In this document: positions 11,093-41,402 of the stretch, piece by piece | Layout: every line of letters begins with the position of its first letter | Numbering within the stretch: the stretch's first letter is position 1 | From: Spiroplasma monobiae MQ-1 | GTDB lineage: Bacteria; Bacillota_I; Bacilli_A; Mycoplasmatales; Mycoplasmataceae | Direction: 5' to 3' | DNA length: 64,000 nucleotides | Assembly: GCF_002865545.1 (NCBI RefSeq) | Contig: NZ_CP025543.1 | Span: 434,001 to 498,000, forward strand | The notes under the pieces: generated by a model | What the model saw: the letters and a program-made list of their open reading frames with translations, nothing else | Database searches by the model: none | What the model was told of the DNA's origin: nothing | Position numbers and translations under genes: made by a program

Positions 11093-11677
11093 ATGGCAAA
11101 TAAAAAAGGTAACAATTTTTTACTATTAAACTACTTCAAACCCTCAATTTATCTTGAAAGTTATAGCAAGGTTAACTTAGCTTCTCTAAAAAATAGTGGT
11201 ATAAAACTTGTTATGTGTGATATGGATAACACACTAATAGGATGAAATGAAAGAATACCTTCTCCAGATGTAATAAACTTTATTAAAAATGTTTATTCTC
11301 AAAATATGGAGTTTGTACTTTTTTCAAACAACATTAGAAGTAGGGTTGAGAACTTTGCCAAAAAAGCAGGGATTAAAAATTACTTTTGAGATTGCAAAAA
11401 ACCACTTCTTGGTAAAATGAAAGTTGTTAAAAGACTTTTTAATTACAAAGAAGAAGAAATGATTTTAATAGGTGATCAACTTGTAACCGATGTATTAGTT
11501 GCCAATAGAGCTCATATAAAGAGTATCTTAGTATCACCTTTAAGTAGAAACAAAGAAGAGAGTAAAACGGTTCAATTCTTTGAAAAATTTATATCAAAAA
11601 AACTATCACAAAAGAACATCTTACATGAAGGGTTCTATAACGAAGGGGAAATAGGGGGCAATTATGAAATTCTCTAA
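11093..11677 (+). CDS. yqeG: YqeG family HAD-superfamily phosphatase
   Basis: 194 residues of the HAD IIIA phosphatase fold. HAD motif I is VMCDMDNTLIGW (nucleophile Asp in DxDxT), motif II is VLFSNN, motif III Lys lies in CKKPLLGKM, and motif IV is LIGDQLVTDV. In Firmicutes yqeG is always next to yqeH and the pair is tied to ribosome assembly; here the genes overlap by 14 nt. A GAGGTGAG ribosome site lies 5 nt before ATG. Confidence 0.92.
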
Positions 11678-12962
11678 TAACGATAAAATAAATGAAATTG
11701 AAAAACAAATAGAAGAACTTGAAGATCAAGCTTTACAAATGAATGCAGCAGCAGAACCGGTTATAAAAGTTAAGCAGAAAAATAAAGTTACTTTAACAGA
11801 GGCTAAACCAGGGGTGGGAAATACTACAAACTTTAATTCAACAGGTCCTAAAAAGTGTATTGGTTGTGGAAGAGAACTTCAAACTGTTGATGACAGACTA
11901 CCTGGATTTAGTTTAAATATTGAAAAACAAGATTTGTGTTTAAGATGTTTTAAAATAAAATATTACAACAAACTTGTTGAACAAGAAATAAATGACCAAG
12001 ACTTTATTAATATTATTGATGAAATTAATTCAACAAGTAAAAAAATTAGATATTACTATGTTGTAGATATTTTTGATTTACCAGGAAGTAGATTAACTTG
12101 ATTGGAACAATTAATTTCCAAAAAAGAAGTTATTATTGTTGTGAATAAAATAGATTTATTCCCTAAATCAGTTAAAAAAACAAAAATATTTAATTATGTT
12201 AAAAAGTTCTTTTCAGATTCACCAATACGTGATTCAAAAATATTACTTACAAGTTCAATTAAGCAAGATTATGTTTATGCACTTGTAAATGAACTTAAAT
12301 CAGTTGAATATGATCAATATATTGTTGGTATTTCAAATGCTGGTAAATCAAGTTTGATGAATGCATGTTTAAAATTAAATCAGCAAATACCTTCAATTGT
12401 TACTTCTAAATATGTAAATACTACTTTAGATAAAATCAAAATTAACTTTACAGAAAAAAACTTTGTATATGACACACCAGGACTTGTAAAGCACAATCAC
12501 ATCGCTATAGCAACAGCTCCTAGTTACTGAGACTTCTTCTTTTTCCAAAAAGAAATTAAACAAGTTACTTATCAATTAAATCAAGGTCAATCAATATTTT
12601 ATGGAGGACTTGCTTGATTTACATTTGAAGAGGGTCAAGCTTATAACGAAAAGAATGGTAAAGAGGCTAAAACAGGTTTCCATTTATATGTAAACAAGCA
12701 ATTACCATTGCATAGAACAAAAGCTGAAAATGCACAAAGATACTTTAAAAAGAATCGTCACTCACTAGCTCCAAGATTATTGGACAAAGATATAGATTTT
12801 GAAACTCATACATTTAGTTATGATAAAGAAAAGAAAGTGGATATCCACATTTCTGGATTAGGCTGAATTAATTTTAAATCTTATGATGGTATGAAATTAT
12901 CAGTTACTGTTCCAAAAACTGAATATGGTGTAAAAGTAAGCGAATTAGAAGCTCTAATTTAA
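11664..12962 (+). CDS. yqeH: Ribosome biogenesis GTPase YqeH (circularly permuted)
   Basis: 432 residues. An N-terminal acidic extension precedes a zinc finger (CIGCGRELQ...CLRCF, four Cys). The GTPase motifs appear in permuted order G4 (NKIDLF), G5 (TSS), G1 (GISNAGKSS), G3 (DTPG). A C-terminal RNA-binding region follows (HISGLGWINF). Family members help 30S subunit maturation. The reading frame crosses several TGA Trp codons. It overlaps yqeG. Confidence 0.93.
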
Positions 12963-12967
12963 TACGC

Positions 12968-13005
12968 AAAAGCAATCATAAGGGTTGCTTTTTTTTTTTT
13001 TTTTT
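12968..13005 (+). terminator. Terminator of yqeGH with a T17 tract
   Basis: Stem AAAAGCAA / TTGCTTTT followed by 17 consecutive T (12989-13005). The tract ends only 28 bp before the next ATG, so it also lies in the promoter zone of the GH85 gene. Confidence 0.8.
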
Positions 13006-13033: not shown

Positions 13034-15568
13034 ATGAAGAAATTAGTTATAGGTTTACTTTGCATAGCAACCACAATGCCTTTTTTGGCATATACAGTTT
13101 CTTGCGGTGATAATTACAAAAATTACGGTATTGATTTAGCTTCAATTAAAGACTATGATTGAAGTTCTGAAGAACCATATTATAAAGGTCATGAAAATAA
13201 TCTAAAATGAGATTTACCAAATGAAGCACAAGAAAGTGTTTTAAAAGTTAGTGAAGTCAACAATTATTTGGACTATAAAAACTTTAACACAGGTTTTAAA
13301 ACTTACAATGAAGTTTTAAAACAATCACCAACTGGTGTTCCATTGAACTCAAAATTTTTGCCTAATGGTAGCAGAAAGAAAAATATGATGGAAATAAGTC
13401 GACAAGAAATTTTTGATGAGGTAAACAGTATCTTGGACTGAAATTACAATAACGATATTGATGCCAAGTACAATAAGTCAAGAATTGATTTACAAAAAAC
13501 CACAAAAACAGCATCTAAGTGAGTTGAATCACAAGATCCGACTGTAAAAGAAATGAATATGCCAGTTATTATTAATAGCACCTCTAAAGAAAACACAATA
13601 ATTGGTAAAAAAAGATCTTACAATAGGAGTTTTAATAATTATCAATACAATGATGTTATGGTTAGTTGAGCTGGTGCTATTGATGAAGGTATAATTGTGC
13701 CTCCTGGTAAAAATGAAGTTGAAAAGGCTCATATTAATGGGACAAAAATATTAGGTAATATATTTTTGGATGGTTATCACGGACTTAAAAAATCACACTT
13801 AAGAGATTTTTTAAAACAAGACTCTCAAGGCAACTACTTGATTATAGATGTTTTAATAAATATGGTTGTTGATTTAGGCTTTGACGGTTGGTTTTGAAAT
13901 AATGAACCAAATGGATATTTTCAAGATGGTTATATACTAAAATATTCTATTGTAATAGAAATGATGAAGCAATGGAATGATAAAATAAAAAAATCTAACG
14001 ATCCAAAAGTTAATGAATTAATTTTATTTACATATAAAAATAATGGAAGTTTGGAAATTGATAAAAATGGAAATCCAATAAGTAGCGAATCAACAGAGTT
14101 ACAAAAGAATAGTGATAAATTTTTAAGTGATTTTGGAGTTACACCAAATAACTCAGAAAAATATTTAGATAAAGAAAATAAGTGAGATGAATCTAAAGAA
14201 ATATATAACATGTATAACCTAGGTGGTTGAATTAATAGTGAGATATTCTATAACAAAGATAGAATTGGTAGAAGAGATTTGAGAGATTTAGTTTATTACC
14301 ACTTAGATGAAAATTGTAACAAATATGAAGATAACATAGCTAAAGAAAAAGCTGATAAGAATGAAAATAAATGAAAATATGATACTTCAAAAACTATAAA
14401 TTCTTTAGCAATTTTTGCTTCTCACACTTCAAGCGATCTTGCCGAAATGGAAATGAATGAAATTGGAAAAGATAGAAATTCTGATACCTATGGACTTGCA
14501 AAACAAAATTATTATGATGACATGATATATACGGGTCACAACAGACAACTATCAGATGAAGATTTTGGTTCAGTCTCATATGATCCAAAAACTTTTCACA
14601 AAGACAGTAGTTATGGTGTTGGAAACATAGTTCAAGAGAAAACGGTTTTAAATGACTTTAATGAATCATTTTTTACAAATTTTTCAACTGGTAATGGAGA
14701 TAAATTTGTCACTTTAAATAATAGTGATGGTTATCAAAAAAGAATAGTTGAAGATAATTATACTTGAAGTAACACGAACATTGCAGATGTGCAACCAACA
14801 TATAAATGAATGGTTAATATTTTGGAAAATAATGGGAAAATCTCTTCAGTGGATTCAGAAAAGATATCTGGATATTATGACTATAAAGATCCATATCTAA
14901 AAGGAAATTCAATAGCTTTAGGAAGCGGGATCGAAAAAGATGGGTCCATAGCTAAAGCCGAATTTGAAAAAGATGCAACTTATGATTGAATGATAATGGG
15001 AACTAATTATACAAAAAATCAATCATTGGATATTTCTATGATTATAAAAAGTGATAGTGATGATATTAGTCCTTCAATAATTATTGAAGGCATAGATGGT
15101 AATGCAAAAAGTTTGGCAACCAATTCAAAAGATCTTGGTGATGGTTGAAAAGAAATTAGTGCTACATTAGAACCAAATGAAACAGTTGCAAAAATAGGTC
15201 TTAGATTTAAAGCAACTAATTCTAAAATGAAAGTAAATGTGGGTCAATTTTCAATTAATAAAAATAAATTAACAAAGGAAAATGATTTAACAAAAAGCAT
15301 AGAAGCAAAATCAGAATTAGTTATTGAAAGAAACAATGAATATAAAAATATAAGAATAAACTTTAAAGATTTATTCAAAGAAAATGACATTTATTCTTAT
15401 TACGAAGTTTATTATGAAGATAAAAATAACCTTTACAGAGTTGGTGAAACTAATTCAAACAATTATTTTGTAAAAAATATACCAATCGAGACAAATAATT
15501 TGTATATTAAAATTCAAAACAATGCTACAAATAAAATGGAGTGGGTTAAATTGAAGATTGGAGTATAA
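13034..15568 (+). CDS. GH85 endo-beta-N-acetylglucosaminidase, surface lipoprotein
   Basis: Predicted to cut the chitobiose core of N-linked glycans outside the cell. The 844-aa product has signal MKKLVIGLLCIATTMPFLAYTVSC with lipidated Cys24. The GH85 barrel is seen at about 195-305: VMVSWAGAIDEGIIVPP, NGTKILGNIFLDGYHG, then VVDLGFDGWFWNNEPNG. The last stretch carries the family's catalytic Asn-x-Glu as N289-N290-E291 (Asn positions the acetamido group, Glu is the acid/base). A C-terminal beta-sandwich carbohydrate-binding-like region is likely (SIIIEGIDGNAKSL, TVAKIGLRF). It contains 19 or more TGA Trp codons. The start follows GGGGATGAGT. An ABC transporter pair begins 4 bp downstream, suggesting one operon. 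Confidence 0.82.
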
Positions 15569-15572
15569 AACA

Positions 15573-16289
15573 ATGTTAGAAATTAAAAATTTAACAAAAA
15601 CAATAGGTAAAAATAAAATAATAAAAAATATTAATATAAAAATTAAAAAAGGTGAATGTGTAGGAATACTTGGTTCAAATGGAGCTGGTAAAACTACTCT
15701 AATGGAACTTATCGTTGGACAAATAAAACCAACAAGTGGTGAAATTCTTATAGATGGTGAAAAGAATACTTATAAAAAAGTTGGAATTCAATTTCAAGAG
15801 GGTAGTTGACCAATGGGGGTTAATTCAAAAATTTTAATTAAATTCTTTAAATCTAATTGATTTAAAGAAACAGACGAAATCACTAAAGAACTTATTAAAA
15901 TTTTTGAAATAGAAGAAATACTTAAAAAGGATTTGAATAACCTTAGTGGAGGTCAAAAACAAAGAATAAATACATTTTTGGCTGTAATTAACAATCCCGA
16001 ATATATATTTTTAGATGAGATGGTAACTGGTTTAGATTTAAAGATGCAACTAAAATTATTAGCTTTCTTTAAAAAATTAAAAAGTGAAGGAAAAACTATC
16101 ATTGTAATTTCACATATTCCAGAAGAAGTTGAAGAACTTTGTGACAGAGTAATAATTTTAAAAAAAGGCGAAATATACATTGATAAAACAACTAGTGAGA
16201 TTATTAAAACTAATGGCAGTGTAAGAAAACTTTTAATTGACTATTATGATAGTGAGGACAAAGAATATGCAAAAAAAATACAGCGATAA
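15573..16289 (+). CDS. ABC transporter ATP-binding protein
   Basis: 238 residues. Walker A is GSNGAGKTT, the Q-loop lies in VGIQFQEGSW, the signature is NLSGGQKQR, Walker B is YIFLDEMVTGLD, and the H-loop is VISH. The type is that of ABC-2 (drug/antibiotic or lipid) exporters of the CcmA/NatA class. ATG at 15573 follows GGAG. The gene overlaps the permease gene by 23 nt, so the pair forms one transporter. Substrate unknown; it could export or protect rather than import glycans. Confidence 0.93.
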
Positions 16290-17130
16290 ATTTCTAAAAT
16301 TTAATAAGAATTTTGCAAATAATTTTTTATTAATTTCTGGATCAGTTTTAAAAAATTTCAGAACATATGTATATTTATTCTTTATTCCAATTTGTTTCAT
16401 GGCTGTTTTTTCTTGATTTACTGGTGGAAGTGATTCAAATTTTAGACCACCTCAATTATTTTTATTTATGATGATTCCAACTTATGCAATAGTATTTTTA
16501 GTCAATATTTCTATTTCGGAATGAAAAAATTCAGTATTTTTAAAAAGAATACACAGTGCTGGTATTTCAAAAATTGAGTTTCTAGCTAGTATATGAATAT
16601 TTAATTTTATAGCTGGATTTATAGCTTTTCTTTTTGGATTACTTACAATTTATATACTTGGTTTCTTTTATGTAAAACCAGCTGAGGAATCTATATCAAC
16701 AATGTTGGGATTAATTAGCTTTTCTGAGTGATTAGGGATATTATATGCAATAAGTTTAAATATAATTATTTCAATATCGATTGGCACAATTATTAGCGGA
16801 CTTGTTAGAAGTGTATCTTTATCACAAAGTATAAGCATCATAGTTATAATGGCTTGCATAGTTTTTTCAGATAATCTTTTATCAATAAGTTTGATGTCAG
16901 TTAATGAGGGACTTGTTATTTTTAGTTACTTTTTCCCTCAAAAACATACTGTTTGAATTGGTTTGATTTCAGCATCTTCAGGACAAGTTGGTTGAGTTGT
17001 TGAAAATCCAGATAGACTAGTAATTAGTTTTGATTTTAATTTACTTTTAGTTTCATTTACAGGACTTTTTTATACAATGATATTAATTATAGCTGCTTAC
17101 TTTTCTTTTGGTTGAAATAACAAAAAATAA
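16267..17130 (+). CDS. ABC-2 type transporter permease
   Basis: 287 residues with six predicted membrane helices and the ABC-2 pattern: a long soluble N-terminus, an interfacial element (VFLKRIHSAGISKIEFLAS) and late helices. It is the partner of the upstream ATPase. ATG at 16267 lies inside the end of the ATPase gene. About ten TGA Trp codons hide it from standard-code ORF finding. Confidence 0.88.
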
Positions 17131-17157
17131 TAAACATTTTTAATTAAAATCTATAAT

Positions 17158-17186
17158 TTGGTTAATAAAAGTGTTATATTTATATT
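17158..17186 (+). promoter_or_regulatory. Promoter of the ROK kinase gene
   Basis: TTGGTT, 17-bp spacer, TATATT, 23 bp before the ATG. The kinase can thus be expressed apart from the GH85/ABC genes. Confidence 0.6.
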
Positions 17187-17209
17187 AAATATGTTTATGG
17201 AGGTTCTAG

Positions 17210-18172
17210 ATGAAATTGGTATTGGCTATTGAAATTGGTGTAAATTCATCAAAAGTTGGACTAGTTAATCAATATGGGGATTTACAAGCTAAATTTTCTG
17301 TTGATCATGACATAAATAATCTTATTTCAAACTTATATAACAAAATAATAGATGGTTTAGAAGCTATTGGAATAAATTATGAAGAAGAAATTGACAAAAT
17401 AGGTCTAGCAATGGGTGGTTACATTGACCACATGTTGGGAATAGTTAGATATTCCGCTAATTTAGACTTAAAAAACTACAACATAAAACAAATTGCAGAA
17501 GAGTTATTCAAGAAACCTATTTTTGTAATAAATGATGCTAATGCAAGTGCTTTAGGAGAATTTTGAACTGGTGTTGCAAAACAATATGACTCAATTATCT
17601 TTTACTGATTAGATGGTGGTATTGGTGGGGCTATAATTACAGAAGGTAAATTAGCTCCAGGATCAAGAGGTTTTGCAGGAGAATTTGGTCATGGTGGAGG
17701 AGTATTTCAAAACAAATACCCTTGTCCTTGTGGTCTTGAAGGGTGTATTGAACCAATGTCTTCAATGCCTGGAATTGAAAATCATTTTAGAACTACATTT
17801 AAAAGTAAGAAAAATCATCCAGCAAGCGATTTCTTCAATAACCCCGAAACAGTTACTTTTAAAGAAATTGTTGAGGCCTATGAAGAAAAAGGTTATCCTT
17901 ATGAAATAACTGATTTATTATCAGAAGCTTTAGAACCATTGGTAATGCACATGGCATCAATGATTAACGCATTGGACCCAGAAGCAATTATTCTAGCTGG
18001 TGGTTTAACAGATTTAGATAGTAAATTAATTGAAATAATTGAAACAAACATTAAAAAATACATAATTGAAATGTTTGCAGAAGAATTAACTATTGAAATT
18101 GCTGAATTAGGAAATGATTCAACAATGATCGGTAGTGCTTATTACGCATTAAATGATTGAAAAATATTCTAA
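17210..18172 (+). CDS. ROK family sugar kinase (glucokinase-like)
   Basis: 320 residues. Phosphate-1-like AIEIGVNSSKVGLV starts the protein; NDANASALGEFW and the zinc motif CPCGLEGCIE (residues 172-181) follow GEFGHGGG, whose His is the fourth zinc ligand. ROK kinases phosphorylate glucose, GlcNAc, ManNAc or fructose with ATP. Specificity cannot be read here, but proximity to an endo-beta-GlcNAc-ase makes GlcNAc or mannose plausible. GGAGG ribosome site, own promoter. Confidence 0.88.
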
Positions 18173-18488: not shown

Positions 18489-20162
18489 ATGAAAAAATTA
18501 TTAGGACTTTTAGCAGCTACAGGTTTAGTTGCAACTACAAGTGCTACAGTTGTAGCTTGTGGTGAAAAACAAGAAACAAGTACAACAAGTGTTACATTAA
18601 AAGATGGTTCACTAGAAGCAAACATTAAATTAGTTAATGCAGAAATGCTTGATGGTGGAACAATTACGGTTACTGGTAATGTTGGAAATTTAAATGTAGA
18701 CTTAAACAACAAAACAGTTAAAGATGGTAAATTCTTGACAACTATTTCAATAGAACAAGCAAATTTACCAAAATTAGAAGATATTAATGAAGTATTAACA
18801 TTTACTTACGTTGCACCAATCGAAGGTGGAGCAACAAAAAGCGAAACAATTACTTTTGAAGTTAATGTTAAAGTTATAGCTAAAAAAGATCAATTAAGTA
18901 CAGTTATCACAACTACTGATTTAGGTGAATTAGAAGATAACAGTCAAGAAACAATTACAGAAGCAATTAATGCCAAAAATGTAAATGCATCAGGTAAATA
19001 CGAATTGTCTAACATAACTCAAAAAGGCGCTATTGCTACAGGTATTGGTACTTTTGAAGGTAAAGTTAATTTATCATTCACAGTTCAAAGTGAAGAAAAC
19101 AAAACATATGACATAAGTTTAGACAAAACTTCAGTAAATTTAGATTTAAATGGAAATGTTAGTTCAACAATTAAAATAGAGAACTTTTCAGAATTAAAAG
19201 ATGTTAAAGTTGAATCAAATAATGCAACTATTGCATCAGTTAACCATGCAAACGGGACAATTACAGTTAATGCAAAGGCAGAAGGAACAGCAAACATTAC
19301 AGTTTCTGCTTCAAATGGTAAGTCAACACAAACAATATCAATTACTGTTGCAGACACAAGAACATATGACATAAGTTTAGACAAAAATTCAGTAAATTTA
19401 GATTTAAATGGAAATGTTAGTTCAACAATTAAAATAGAGAACTTTTCAGAATTAAAAGATGTTAAAGTTGAATCAAACAATGCAACTATTGCATCAGTTA
19501 ACCATGCAAACGGGACAATTACAGTTAATGCTAAAGCAGAAGGAACAGCAAACATTATAGTTTCTGCTTCAAATGGTAAGTCAACACAAACAATATCAAT
19601 TACTGTTGCAGACACAAGAACATATGACATAAGTTTAGACAAAACTTCAGTAAATTTAGATTTAAATGGAAATGTTAGTTCAACAATTAAAATAGAGAAC
19701 TTTTCAGAATTAAAAGATGTTAAAGTTGAATCAAAAAATGCAGCTATTGTATCAGTTAACCATGCAAACGGGACAATTACAGTTAATGCTAAAGCAGAAG
19801 GAACAGCAAACATTACAGTTTCTGCTTCAAATGGTAAGTCAACACAAACAATATCAATTACTGTTGCAGACACAAGAACATATGACATAAGTTTAGACAA
19901 AACTTCAGTAAATTTAGATTTAAATGGAAATGTTAGTTCAACAATTAAAATAGAGAACTTTTCAGAATTAAAAGATGTTAAAGTTGAATCAAAAAATGCA
20001 GCTATTGTATCAGTTAACCATGCAAACGGGACAATTACAGTTAATGCTAAAGCAGAAGGAACAGCAAACATTACAGTTTCTGCTTCAAATGGTAAATCAG
20101 TAGCTGAGGTTTCAGTTACAATTGTAGATACAACTCCAACTGAACCAGAAGAAACTTTATAA
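18489..20162 (+). CDS. Spiralin-like surface lipoprotein with four Ig-like (BIG2) repeats
   Basis: 557 residues. The signal MKKLLGLLAATGLVATTSATVVACG is very like spiralin's and is lipidated at Cys25. Residues 26-205 contain two spiralin-like modules, the second DQLSTVITTTDLGELEDN...KGAIATGIGTFEGKV. From residue 206 four near-identical 86-aa domains follow, each YDISLDKxSVNLDLNGNVSS...NGTITVNAKAEGTANITVSA, typical bacterial Ig-like group 2 (intimin/invasin-type) folds. It ends in an acidic tail TPTEPEETL. There is no Trp or TGA. The surface location and stalk-like array suggest adhesion or a protective coat. The AAGGGGAAAG ribosome site before 18489 sets the start; an in-frame codon at 18465 is ignored. 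Confidence 0.9.
   Translation: MKKLLGLLAATGLVATTSATVVACGEKQETSTTSVTLKDGSLEANIKLVNAEMLDGGTITVTGNVGNLNVDLNNKTVKDGKFLTTISIEQANLPKLEDINEVLTFTYVAPIEGGATKSETITFEVNVKVIAKKDQLSTVITTTDLGELEDNSQETITEAINAKNVNASGKYELSNITQKGAIATGIGTFEGKVNLSFTVQSEENKTYDISLDKTSVNLDLNGNVSSTIKIENFSELKDVKVESNNATIASVNHANGTITVNAKAEGTANITVSASNGKSTQTISITVADTRTYDISLDKNSVNLDLNGNVSSTIKIENFSELKDVKVESNNATIASVNHANGTITVNAKAEGTANIIVSASNGKSTQTISITVADTRTYDISLDKTSVNLDLNGNVSSTIKIENFSELKDVKVESKNAAIVSVNHANGTITVNAKAEGTANITVSASNGKSTQTISITVADTRTYDISLDKTSVNLDLNGNVSSTIKIENFSELKDVKVESKNAAIVSVNHANGTITVNAKAEGTANITVSASNGKSVAEVSVTIVDTTPTEPEETL
19104..20135 (+). repeat. Four tandem 258-bp repeats encoding Ig-like domains
   Basis: Unit starts at 19104, 19362, 19620 and 19878, exactly 258 bp (86 codons) apart. 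Units differ by only a few bases; units 3 and 4 share the KNAAIV variant while 1 and 2 share NNATIA. The last unit diverges after about 215 bp. The near-identity implies recent duplication or gene conversion and a likelihood of length change by recombination. Confidence 0.97.
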
Positions 20163-22532: not shown

Positions 22533-22567
22533 TTTTTTTTTTTTTTTTTACAAATTTCATATATAAT
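22533..22567 (+). promoter_or_regulatory. T17 tract and -10 box upstream of the MBL gene
   Basis: Seventeen consecutive T (22533-22549) end 12 bp before a perfect TATAAT (22562-22567). The position expected for a -35 box lies inside the T tract, so the tract may serve as UP/-35 element or vary by slippage. The ATG is 74 bp further on, giving a long leader. Confidence 0.5.
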
Positions 22568-39909: not shown

Positions 39910-40776
39910 ATGGCAGGATTTGCACCAAAGTTTTGTCCAACCCACCTACAAATACATGTCTGTGAGTTACAAAACGTATTTAACAAAAATAAAACAATTG
40001 AAGATGATCTTGGGGCAAAAGTTAGAAGACTGCATGGAACTCAAACAGAAGAAGAGTTAGCCCAACAAGAATCAAAAAGAAAGCATCAGCCAGGTACTTT
40101 AGGAGATATTTTAGCAAAAGCAAGGCAAAAAATAGATCAAGAAAAAGAAACTATCGCACAAAATGATCCAGATAATAAAGTAGCTTCTGGTGAAGAAATA
40201 AATGATAGAATGGCTGCTTTAAGGGCTAAAATGATGGGCGGAAGCACCCCATCCCCTTCCAACGACCAACAATTCAAACAACAAGAATCAACAGGATTAC
40301 AAAAAGTTATACAAAATGCTCAAGAACACCAAAAAGAAAACCCACAAGAGGTATTTAAAGCCCCTGAAAGGTCAACTATGGGTGAAAATAAGTATAAAGA
40401 CTTGCCTAGAGGTAACAAACCTTCAGCAGTATTAAAAGATTTAGATTTAGATTTAATTACTGCAGATGACGTTGTTGGAGAACCAACTTCTAAAAAAGAA
40501 GATAAATTAAAACTTAAAAAAACAAAAGAAGAACGAAAAGAAAATGCTGAAAAGTTGTTTAGTCAAGAAGAAACTCAAGAATTAATTCAATTAGCAGTAA
40601 AAGAGGCTTTAAAACAAGTTGGAATAATTGGTGAAAATGAAAAACCAAAGAAAACAACAACAAAAGCAAAAAGCAAAAATGTAACTACATCTTCTAAGAG
40701 AGCCAAATCAGAAGATGAAGATAATCAAAAAATAAGCGAAGAAAAGAAACCAAAAATTAAAAAAGAGGAAATATAA
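39910..40776 (+). CDS. Conserved Lys/Gln-rich hypothetical protein
   Basis: 288 residues, hydrophilic. Start MAGFAPKFCPTHLQIHVCELQ has two Cys and two His that could bind zinc. The middle is low complexity (NDQQFKQQES) with an internal helix (QEETQELIQLAVKEALKQVGII), then a tail rich in Lys, Thr and Ser (KKTTTKAKSKNVTTSSKR) recalling the 2984 gene's tail. GGAGG ribosome site. Function unknown. Confidence 0.8.
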   Translation: MAGFAPKFCPTHLQIHVCELQNVFNKNKTIEDDLGAKVRRLHGTQTEEELAQQESKRKHQPGTLGDILAKARQKIDQEKETIAQNDPDNKVASGEEINDRMAALRAKMMGGSTPSPSNDQQFKQQESTGLQKVIQNAQEHQKENPQEVFKAPERSTMGENKYKDLPRGNKPSAVLKDLDLDLITADDVVGEPTSKKEDKLKLKKTKEERKENAEKLFSQEETQELIQLAVKEALKQVGIIGENEKPKKTTTKAKSKNVTTSSKRAKSEDEDNQKISEEKKPKIKKEEI

Positions 40777-40790
40777 ATATTTCCTCTTTT
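40761..40790. terminator. Bidirectional terminator
   Basis: Perfect 14-bp stem AAAAGAGGAAATAT / ATATTTCCTCTTTT with a 2-nt loop, shared by convergent genes and overlapping the + gene's stop. Confidence 0.92.
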
Positions 40791-40793
40791 TAT

Positions 40794-41402
40794 TTAATAA
40801 ACTATAAATTCATGACCATTGAAGTCCCCTTCAATGCTTTCTATAAAACACTTTGCTGCATTTTTTACAGGTACTGGTTTAACTCCGATGAAATATTCTC
40901 CATAATCTTTCATAGATTCATCAAATACAGATGGACTTACACAATTAATCCTAATATCTTTTTTAAAATCTATTGCAGCTCCTTTTACAAATGAAGCTAC
41001 AGCACCGTTTGTCATCGATAACATTGAACCCATCTTTATTGGTTGGTCTTTAATAACTCCAGTTGTCAAAGTAAAACTACCCTTTTCATTCAGATAATTT
41101 TGTCCAATAAGAACTAAATTTAATTGTCCAAGCAGTTTATTTTGAACAGAATAAAGAACATCTTCATTTGTAAGATCTTCAATAGGTTTCATAGCAGCAC
41201 TTCCTGCTGCAGAAATCACATGATCCACACTTCCCAATTTTTCAAACATTTCTTTTATGCTATCGATAGAACTCATATCAACCCTTAAGTCCCCTGAGTT
41301 TCTCCCAGCAGTTATGACTTCATAACTATCTTCTTTTAATTTTAGTTCGTTTTGGATTGCAGAACCTAAAGTACCACTGGCTCCAACTAAAAGTATTTTC
41401 AT
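40794..41402 (-). CDS. Atypical short-chain dehydrogenase (Lin1944-like)
   Basis: 202 residues. The Rossmann start LLVGASGTLGSAI binds NAD(P), and SAAG and RINCVSPSVFDESM are also SDR-like. The catalytic YxxxK is absent; the place reads MLSMTNGAVASFVKGAA (127-143). This matches the SDR subgroup of Listeria Lin1944, known for lacking the active-site residues. Activity is therefore uncertain. AGGTAATAC precedes ATG. Confidence 0.85.
   Translation of the reverse strand: MKILLVGASGTLGSAIQNELKLKEDSYEVITAGRNSGDLRVDMSSIDSIKEMFEKLGSVDHVISAAGSAAMKPIEDLTNEDVLYSVQNKLLGQLNLVLIGQNYLNEKGSFTLTTGVIKDQPIKMGSMLSMTNGAVASFVKGAAIDFKKDIRINCVSPSVFDESMKDYGEYFIGVKPVPVKNAAKCFIESIEGDFNGHEFIVY

What the first reader, a model, noticed from the sequence alone, without database searches (positions are those of the whole stretch)
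13034..18172. Surface GH85 endoglycosidase linked to an ABC exporter pair and a ROK kinase: a host-glycan attack module
Seen: an 844-aa lipoprotein with the GH85 catalytic Asn-x-Glu (N289-x-E291), followed 4 bp later by an ABC ATPase/permease pair, then a ROK sugar kinase. Known: GH85 enzymes release N-glycans from glycoproteins. Inference: the cell trims host N-glycans for food, adhesion control or antibody/lectin evasion; the ABC-2 pair may serve export or self-protection rather than sugar import.
Basis: partly seen in the sequence, partly recalled or inferred. Interest (0 to 1): 0.75.

Follow-up and report, generated by a model that had tools for sequence, protein, structure and literature searches.

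The report
Surface glycan-cutting enzyme with dedicated exporter
This wall-less, spiroplasma-type bacterium carries on its surface an enzyme that probably cuts sugar chains off host proteins, and nearly every relative that has the enzyme keeps it next to its own exporter-type ATP-driven membrane pump, a pairing I found in no other bacteria looked at and in no paper searched.

Summary
Read with TGA=Trp, 13034-15568 encodes an 844-aa GH85 lipoprotein (Cys24, Asn289-x-Glu291), followed 4 bp later by an ABC ATPase and an overlapping ABC-2-fold permease.

In the same GTDB family 33 of 60 genomes have GH85. Of 57 GH85 genes, 53 have this permease within 3 kb on the same strand, against about 1% expected. 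GH85 subfamilies match operon layouts, and the GH85 and ATPase trees agree (r=0.88; swapping ATPases between modules inside genomes never exceeds 0.65). Two-permease modules add an accessory protein family unknown to Pfam. I found no such permease beside GH85 genes outside the family; in the loci identified there, GH85 sits with sugar importers and mannosidases.

Two parts of the interpretation fail. The ROK kinase is a resident gene of a yqeH-ROK-tkt backbone into which the module was inserted. Feeding is unlikely here: the genome has no GH38, GH92, GH125 or GH130.

Best reading: a non-nutritional host-glycan-trimming surface machine with a dedicated ABC-2 transporter, comparable in logic to the mycoplasma MIB-MIP/ATPase system, which is reported absent from Spiroplasma and Mesoplasma. 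What the transporter moves is unknown.

The parts
12968..13005 (+). Terminator-like hairpin after yqeH (12968-12992) running into a T17 tract (12989-13005) that ends 28 bp before the GH85 start; candidate boundary, and possibly a length-variable promoter tract
   Evidence: Hairpin scan; tract length and its presence in relatives. Function inferred
13034..13105 (+). Lipoprotein signal peptide of GH85, residues 1-24, ending at lipobox TVSC (Cys24)
   Evidence: Sequence; Cys24 nearly invariant in 24 relatives
13034..15568 (+). GH85 endo-beta-N-acetylglucosaminidase-like surface lipoprotein, 844 aa (table 4); catalytic Asn289/Glu291 at 13898-13906
   Evidence: Pfam PF03644 81.8 bits; Endo-A match; fold; residues invariant
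15573..16289 (+). ABC transporter ATPase, 238 aa, with Walker A GSNGAGKTT, signature LSGGQ and Walker B motifs
   Evidence: Pfam ABC_tran 91.6 bits; sequence; best PDB match an ABCA-type ATPase; tree congruent with GH85
16267..17130 (+). ABC-2-fold permease, 287 aa, about 6 transmembrane helices
   Evidence: Fold Z 14-17 to ABCG25, KpsM, Wzm, NosY; found beside 53 of 57 GH85 genes
17210..18172 (+). ROK sugar kinase: neighbour only, NOT part of the module
   Evidence: PF00480 164.1 bits; yqeH-ROK direct neighbours in 9 genomes of the genus without a module at this site
11664..12962 (+). yqeH-type GTPase: left flank of the insertion site, not part of the module
   Evidence: Pfam; synteny

Best explanation
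13034-17130 is a three-gene module made of an outer-surface GH85 endoglycosidase lipoprotein plus its own ABC-2 transporter (ATPase and permease, presumably a homodimeric pump with two copies of each). It is one of several ancient paralogous GH85-ABC modules spread through Spiroplasma and related mollicutes. Shown: linkage, co-diversification of GH85 and ATPase, conserved catalytic residues in the aligned sequences, and absence of the pairing in the GH85 loci examined outside the family. Inferred: the lipoprotein cuts host N-glycans at the chitobiose core at the cell surface, and the ATP-driven transporter works directly with it, either powering or resetting the surface complex or moving a membrane-associated partner of the reaction, rather than importing the released sugar. 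The role is host-surface or host-glycoprotein modification (adhesion, protection) rather than feeding. The ROK kinase is not part of it.
For: 53 of 57 GH85 genes in the family have the permease within 3 kb on the same strand, in at least four gene orders. GH85 and ATPase trees agree, r=0.876; 0 of 5000 within-genome swaps reach it. Catalytic pair invariant. No such permease beside GH85 outside the family; a feeding locus there has importer permeases, GH38, GH130 and ROK. The own genome lacks GH38, GH92, GH125 and GH130. Permease fold is exporter type. The parallel system MIB-MIP needs an ATPase partner and is reported absent from Spiroplasma and Mesoplasma (PMC12994834).
Against: No activity, transcription, localisation or interaction data. 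Direction and substrate of the transporter are unknown. The permease is below Pfam's cut-off. Other glycan-degrading enzymes not searched for could exist. Two trees of linked genes agree partly because linked genes are inherited together, although paralogs within one genome could have exchanged partners and did not.
Confidence: 0.55

Rival explanations
1. Nutrient module: GH85 releases host N-glycans and the ABC pair (or another transporter) imports them, with the ROK kinase feeding the sugars into glycolysis.
For: GH85 elsewhere serves feeding, as in S. pneumoniae EndoD/NgtS (PMC5215778) and a Lachnospiraceae locus with GH38, GH130 and ROK. ROK is next door. GH38 occurs in 15 of 60 genomes of the family.
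Against: Exporter-type permease fold, no binding protein or importer permease in the unit. No GH38, GH92, GH125 or GH130 in this genome. ROK belongs to the resident backbone. The one GH85 gene found beside GH38 (L032) has no ABC-2 pair.
Confidence: 0.15
2. Self-protection: the ABC-2 pair expels a host antimicrobial peptide or lipid-active compound, in the manner of bacteriocin-immunity pumps with one ATPase, two permeases and a lipoprotein; the GH85 lipoprotein recognises or disarms a glycosylated attacker.
For: One ATPase plus one or two permeases plus lipoproteins is the layout of such pumps; the lantibiotic-protection ATPase model is among the generic ATPase matches. Wall-less cells need membrane protection (general knowledge).
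Against: The ATPase match is generic and far below the curated cut-off. Nothing ties the GH85 domain to peptides.
Confidence: 0.15
3. Glycan cloaking: the ABC-2 transporter flips a glycolipid or other acceptor to the outer leaflet, and the GH85 domain transfers host N-glycans onto it, coating the cell with host sugar.
For: GH85 enzymes such as Endo-A are known for transglycosylation (general knowledge); the permease fold is closest to glycolipid, polysaccharide and lipid transporters such as KpsM, Wzm, TarG and ABCA1.
Against: No acceptor known. The Endo-A aromatic residues Trp216 and Trp244 have no counterpart here. The ABC-2 fold alone does not give a substrate.
Confidence: 0.08
4. Neutral hitch-hiking: the GH85 gene and the ABC pair merely move together as cargo and have no common function.
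For: The module sits at a variable insertion site; a DNA methylase and an unknown gene occupy it in the close relative G039.
Against: Linkage in 53 of 57 cases over many genera with at least four gene orders, and congruent trees across deep paralogs.
Confidence: 0.03

Closest known systems
GH85 enzymes Endo-A (Arthrobacter protophormiae) and Endo-D (Streptococcus pneumoniae)
   Same: GH85 domain, catalytic Asn-x-Glu and Tyr, overall fold
   Different: Lipoprotein of a mollicute with its own ABC-2 pair; residues equivalent to Endo-A Trp216 and Trp244 lacking; about 130-residue N-terminal region of its own
N-glycan utilisation loci (S. pneumoniae EndoD/NgtS, PMC5215778; Lachnospiraceae locus L136)
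   Same: GH85 acting outside the cell, sometimes a ROK kinase nearby
   Different: There: binding-protein-dependent importer plus GH38/GH92/GH125/GH130. Here: exporter-type ABC-2 pair and none of those enzymes in the genome
MIB-MIP with F1-like X0 ATPase of mycoplasmas (PMC12994834)
   Same: Works-like comparison: mollicute surface system acting on host glycoproteins, genetically tied to a dedicated ATP-driven complex
   Different: No shared components known; F-type ATPase rather than ABC; acts on antibodies; reported absent from Spiroplasma and Mesoplasma
ABC-2 transporters NosFY-NosD, KpsMT, WzmWzt
   Same: Permease fold; NosFY also serves an extracytoplasmic protein (NosD)
   Different: No detectable sequence similarity of the permease profile to any PDB chain; different substrates and partners

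Membership tests
GH85 endo-beta-N-acetylglucosaminidase | Sequence match to the family profile | tested here: met
   PF03644 81.8 bits, cut-off 22.2
GH85 endo-beta-N-acetylglucosaminidase | Catalytic Asn-x-Glu pair and partner Tyr | tested here: met
   Asn289, Glu291 and Tyr334 aligned to Endo-A Asn171, Glu173, Tyr205; invariant in 24 and 31 sequences
GH85 endo-beta-N-acetylglucosaminidase | GH85 barrel plus beta-sandwich fold | tested here: met
   Foldseek best matches are all GH85, E 1.3e-32, although mean pLDDT is only 61.9
GH85 endo-beta-N-acetylglucosaminidase | Cleavage of the chitobiose core of N-glycans | not testable with these tools
   Needs the expressed enzyme
ABC-2 (exporter-type) transporter | ATPase with Walker A, signature and Walker B motifs | tested here: met
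   GSNGAGKTT, LSGGQ, YIFLDE in 15573-16289; PF00005 91.6 bits
ABC-2 (exporter-type) transporter | Permease matched by a Pfam ABC2 profile over its cut-off | tested here: inconclusive
   PF12698 13.7 bits against 31.6
ABC-2 (exporter-type) transporter | ABC-2/ABCG permease fold | tested here: met
   Z 14-17 to ABCG25, KpsM, Wzm, TarG, NosY over most of the model (model pLDDT 74.6)
ABC-2 (exporter-type) transporter | Transport out of the cell | not testable with these tools
   Direction and substrate unknown
N-glycan utilisation locus | Importer permeases and binding protein beside GH85 | tested here: not met
   Neighbours are an ABC-2 pair, yqeH and ROK
N-glycan utilisation locus | Alpha-mannosidases or mannoside phosphorylase in the genome | tested here: not met
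   No GH38, GH92, GH125 or GH130 in G000
N-glycan utilisation locus | ROK kinase as a member of the unit | tested here: not met
   yqeH-ROK adjacent without a module in 9 genomes; module on either side of ROK
[quoted passage not shown]
   Not searched here; PMC12994834 reports none in Spiroplasma or Mesoplasma. Used only as a functional parallel

The most novel reading that the evidence does not exclude
A previously undescribed class of ATP-powered surface glycan machine: an ABC-2 transporter physically coupled to an extracellular endoglycosidase, in its two-permease form with an unnamed accessory protein, that strips or transfers host N-glycans at the surface of arthropod-associated mollicutes. 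It would be the counterpart of MIB-MIP in lineages whose hosts lack antibodies, and in some species it may be switched by a poly-T promoter tract.
Probability: 0.25. Interest if true: 0.85.

Novelty: new variant of a known kind. Interest (0 to 1): 0.62.

Why it matters
Spiroplasmas and their relatives live on and in arthropods and plants, yet the molecules with which these wall-less cells handle host glycoproteins are poorly known. A GH85 enzyme kept for deep evolutionary time with its own exporter-type pump, multiplied into several subfamilies per genome and absent as a pairing from the other bacteria examined, points to a dedicated machine with a testable role at the host interface. It would also be a second mollicute case, unrelated in its parts to MIB-MIP, where a surface enzyme acting on host glycoproteins is tied to a dedicated ATP-driven complex.

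Tried and rejected
Rejected: ROK as a module member; the feeding interpretation for this genome; chance linkage. Considered and kept only as weak leads: poly-T phase variation, because the genome has 25 T15+ tracts upstream of diverse genes, not only lipoproteins, and the T run also follows the yqeH terminator hairpin; and the accessory proteins, because families B, C, D and E are related to different degrees (C-D 98.7%, B-D 93.6%, B-E 84% probability; D-E not detectable) and none is present in the window.
Full report
WHAT IS THERE. The window lies in an 891,575-base single-contig genome that must be read with TGA=Trp. The reported features are real. GH85: 13034-15568, 844 aa, lipoprotein signal (Cys24). 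ABC ATPase: 15573-16289, 4 bp after the GH85 stop. Permease: 16267-17130, overlapping the ATPase gene. ROK kinase: 17210-18172. Pfam confirms GH85 (81.8 bits), ABC_tran (91.6) and ROK (164.1); the permease is a sub-threshold ABC2 match. By sequence the nearest solved protein is Endo-A, with its catalytic Asn171/Glu173 aligned to Asn289/Glu291. The same pair is invariant in 24 relatives from the family and in 31 sequences that include Lachnospiraceae, Acholeplasmataceae and Kitasatospora. Tyr334, equivalent to Endo-A Tyr205, is also invariant. The tryptophans equivalent to Endo-A Trp216 and Trp244 have no counterpart in residues 334-370, so glycan or acceptor preference may differ. The AlphaFold model (pLDDT 61.9, N-terminal 25-130 unreliable) still finds only GH85 structures at the top. 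The permease model (pLDDT 74.6) has the ABC-2/ABCG fold (Z 14-17 to ABCG25, KpsM, Wzm, ABCA1, TarG and NosY).

A FAMILY-WIDE MODULE. A search of 60 genomes of the GTDB family found GH85 in 33. I read 13-20 kb around every hit except one on a 6.8-kb contig and mapped the genes. Of 57 GH85 genes, 53 have a relative of the window's permease within 3 kb on the same strand, usually overlapping or close by; 49 have the ATPase there too, and three more have an ATPase beside them on the other strand. Permease relatives number about 110 over 60 genomes, so a random gene would meet one in roughly 1% of cases (my estimate). Four main layouts occur: GH85-ATPase-permease (the window's), ATPase-permease-GH85, ATPase-permease-GH85-permease, and ATPase-permease-permease-GH85. 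The GH85 tree sorts by layout, not by genome. The ATPase tree repeats the same main clades. Patristic distances correlate at r=0.876 over 52 modules; when ATPases are swapped only between modules of the same genome (14 genomes, 33 modules), none of 5000 trials reached that value (maximum 0.654). GH85 and transporter have therefore diversified together as units. Two-permease modules also carry an accessory membrane-anchored or lipoprotein gene (about 250-455 aa) with no significant Pfam match; the B, C and D families are related by profile comparison and E more weakly.

CONTRAST OUTSIDE THE FAMILY. GH85 genes of Lachnospiraceae, Acholeplasmataceae, Kitasatospora and other Bacilli show no such permease nearby (loci). 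In a Lachnospiraceae example the neighbours are two binding-protein-dependent permeases, a DUF3502 protein of the size and position of a binding protein, GH130, GH38 and ROK: a feeding locus, like the pneumococcal EndoD/NgtS system (PMC5215778). Inside the mollicute family the only intact GH85 genes without the ABC-2 pair are L032, L033 and L042. L032 and L033 form the deepest branch, and L032 lies beside GH38; L042 is a duplicate within the window's clade. A fourth, L082, is broken.

WHAT IS NOT PART OF IT. In nine genomes of the genus yqeH and ROK are direct neighbours, mostly followed by tkt. In the window and four relatives (G034, G040, G041, G043) the GH85 module stands between yqeH and ROK; in G035 and G042 it stands after ROK. 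In the close relative G039 a DNA methylase and an unknown gene occupy the yqeH-ROK gap instead. The ROK kinase is thus a resident of the insertion site. The genome has no GH38, GH92, GH125 or GH130, so degradation of a released high-mannose glycan by known routes is not supported.

MECHANISM. Shown: linkage, co-diversification, catalytic residues, lipoprotein signal, exporter-type fold, intact ATPase motifs. Inferred: the GH85 domain faces the host and cuts N-glycans; the pump is dedicated to it and does not import sugar. The best parallel in logic is MIB-MIP of mycoplasmas, whose antibody processing needs a co-occurring ATPase cluster and which is reported absent from Spiroplasma, Mesoplasma and Entomoplasma (PMC12994834). 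NosFY-NosD shows that an ABC-2 transporter can serve an extracytoplasmic protein. Host glycans matter to these bacteria: S. citri spiralin acts as a lectin for insect glycoproteins (cited in PMC5874924). What the pump moves is unknown.

A POSSIBLE SWITCH. A T17 tract ends 28 bp before the GH85 start. Homopolymer lengths in the window jump from 10 to 17, so this is a separate class. T15-17 tracts stand in front of GH85 in 7 loci of the window's class, including all five with the yqeH-module-ROK order, and in none of the other classes, against a background of about one such run per 19 kb. The genome has 25 such tracts before diverse genes. Phase variation is a reasonable but untested reading; the tract may also serve as the terminator tail of yqeH.

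NOVELTY. The open papers searched mention Spiroplasma endo-beta-N-acetylglucosaminidase only as an annotated or expressed gene (PMC9666726, PMC7187355); none found describes the ABC-2 pairing. Subscription journals were not searchable. Each component belongs to a known family and the combination appears new: a new variant of a known kind.

Noticed in passing
window 18489-20162: Lipoprotein with four near-identical Ig-like (Big_2) repeats of about 80-90 residues: candidate size-variable surface protein.
   Followed up: no
window about 40000-41000: GC skew changes sign and the main coding strand switches here, near the middle of the genome coordinate range: likely replication terminus region.
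   Followed up: no
window 12989-13005 and 22533-22549; 25 places genome-wide: Discrete class of T15+ tracts (none of exactly 14; lengths 16-20 at the places read) upstream of diverse genes, several of them lipoproteins: possible slippage-controlled promoters.
   Followed up: partly
L193 3806-6836 (G039): In the close relative the yqeH-ROK gap holds a DNA methylase gene and an unknown 591-aa gene instead of the GH85 module: a variable insertion site.
   Followed up: partly
L054 and L121 (Spiroplasma poulsonii MSRO_BK): GH85, ATPase and one permease of the module are broken into pieces in this assembly: gene decay or sequencing indels.
   Followed up: no
L074 10149-11447, L046 8124-9218, L036 5008-5781, L119 5146-6429: Accessory protein families with no significant Pfam match, found with two-permease GH85 modules; function unknown.
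   Followed up: partly
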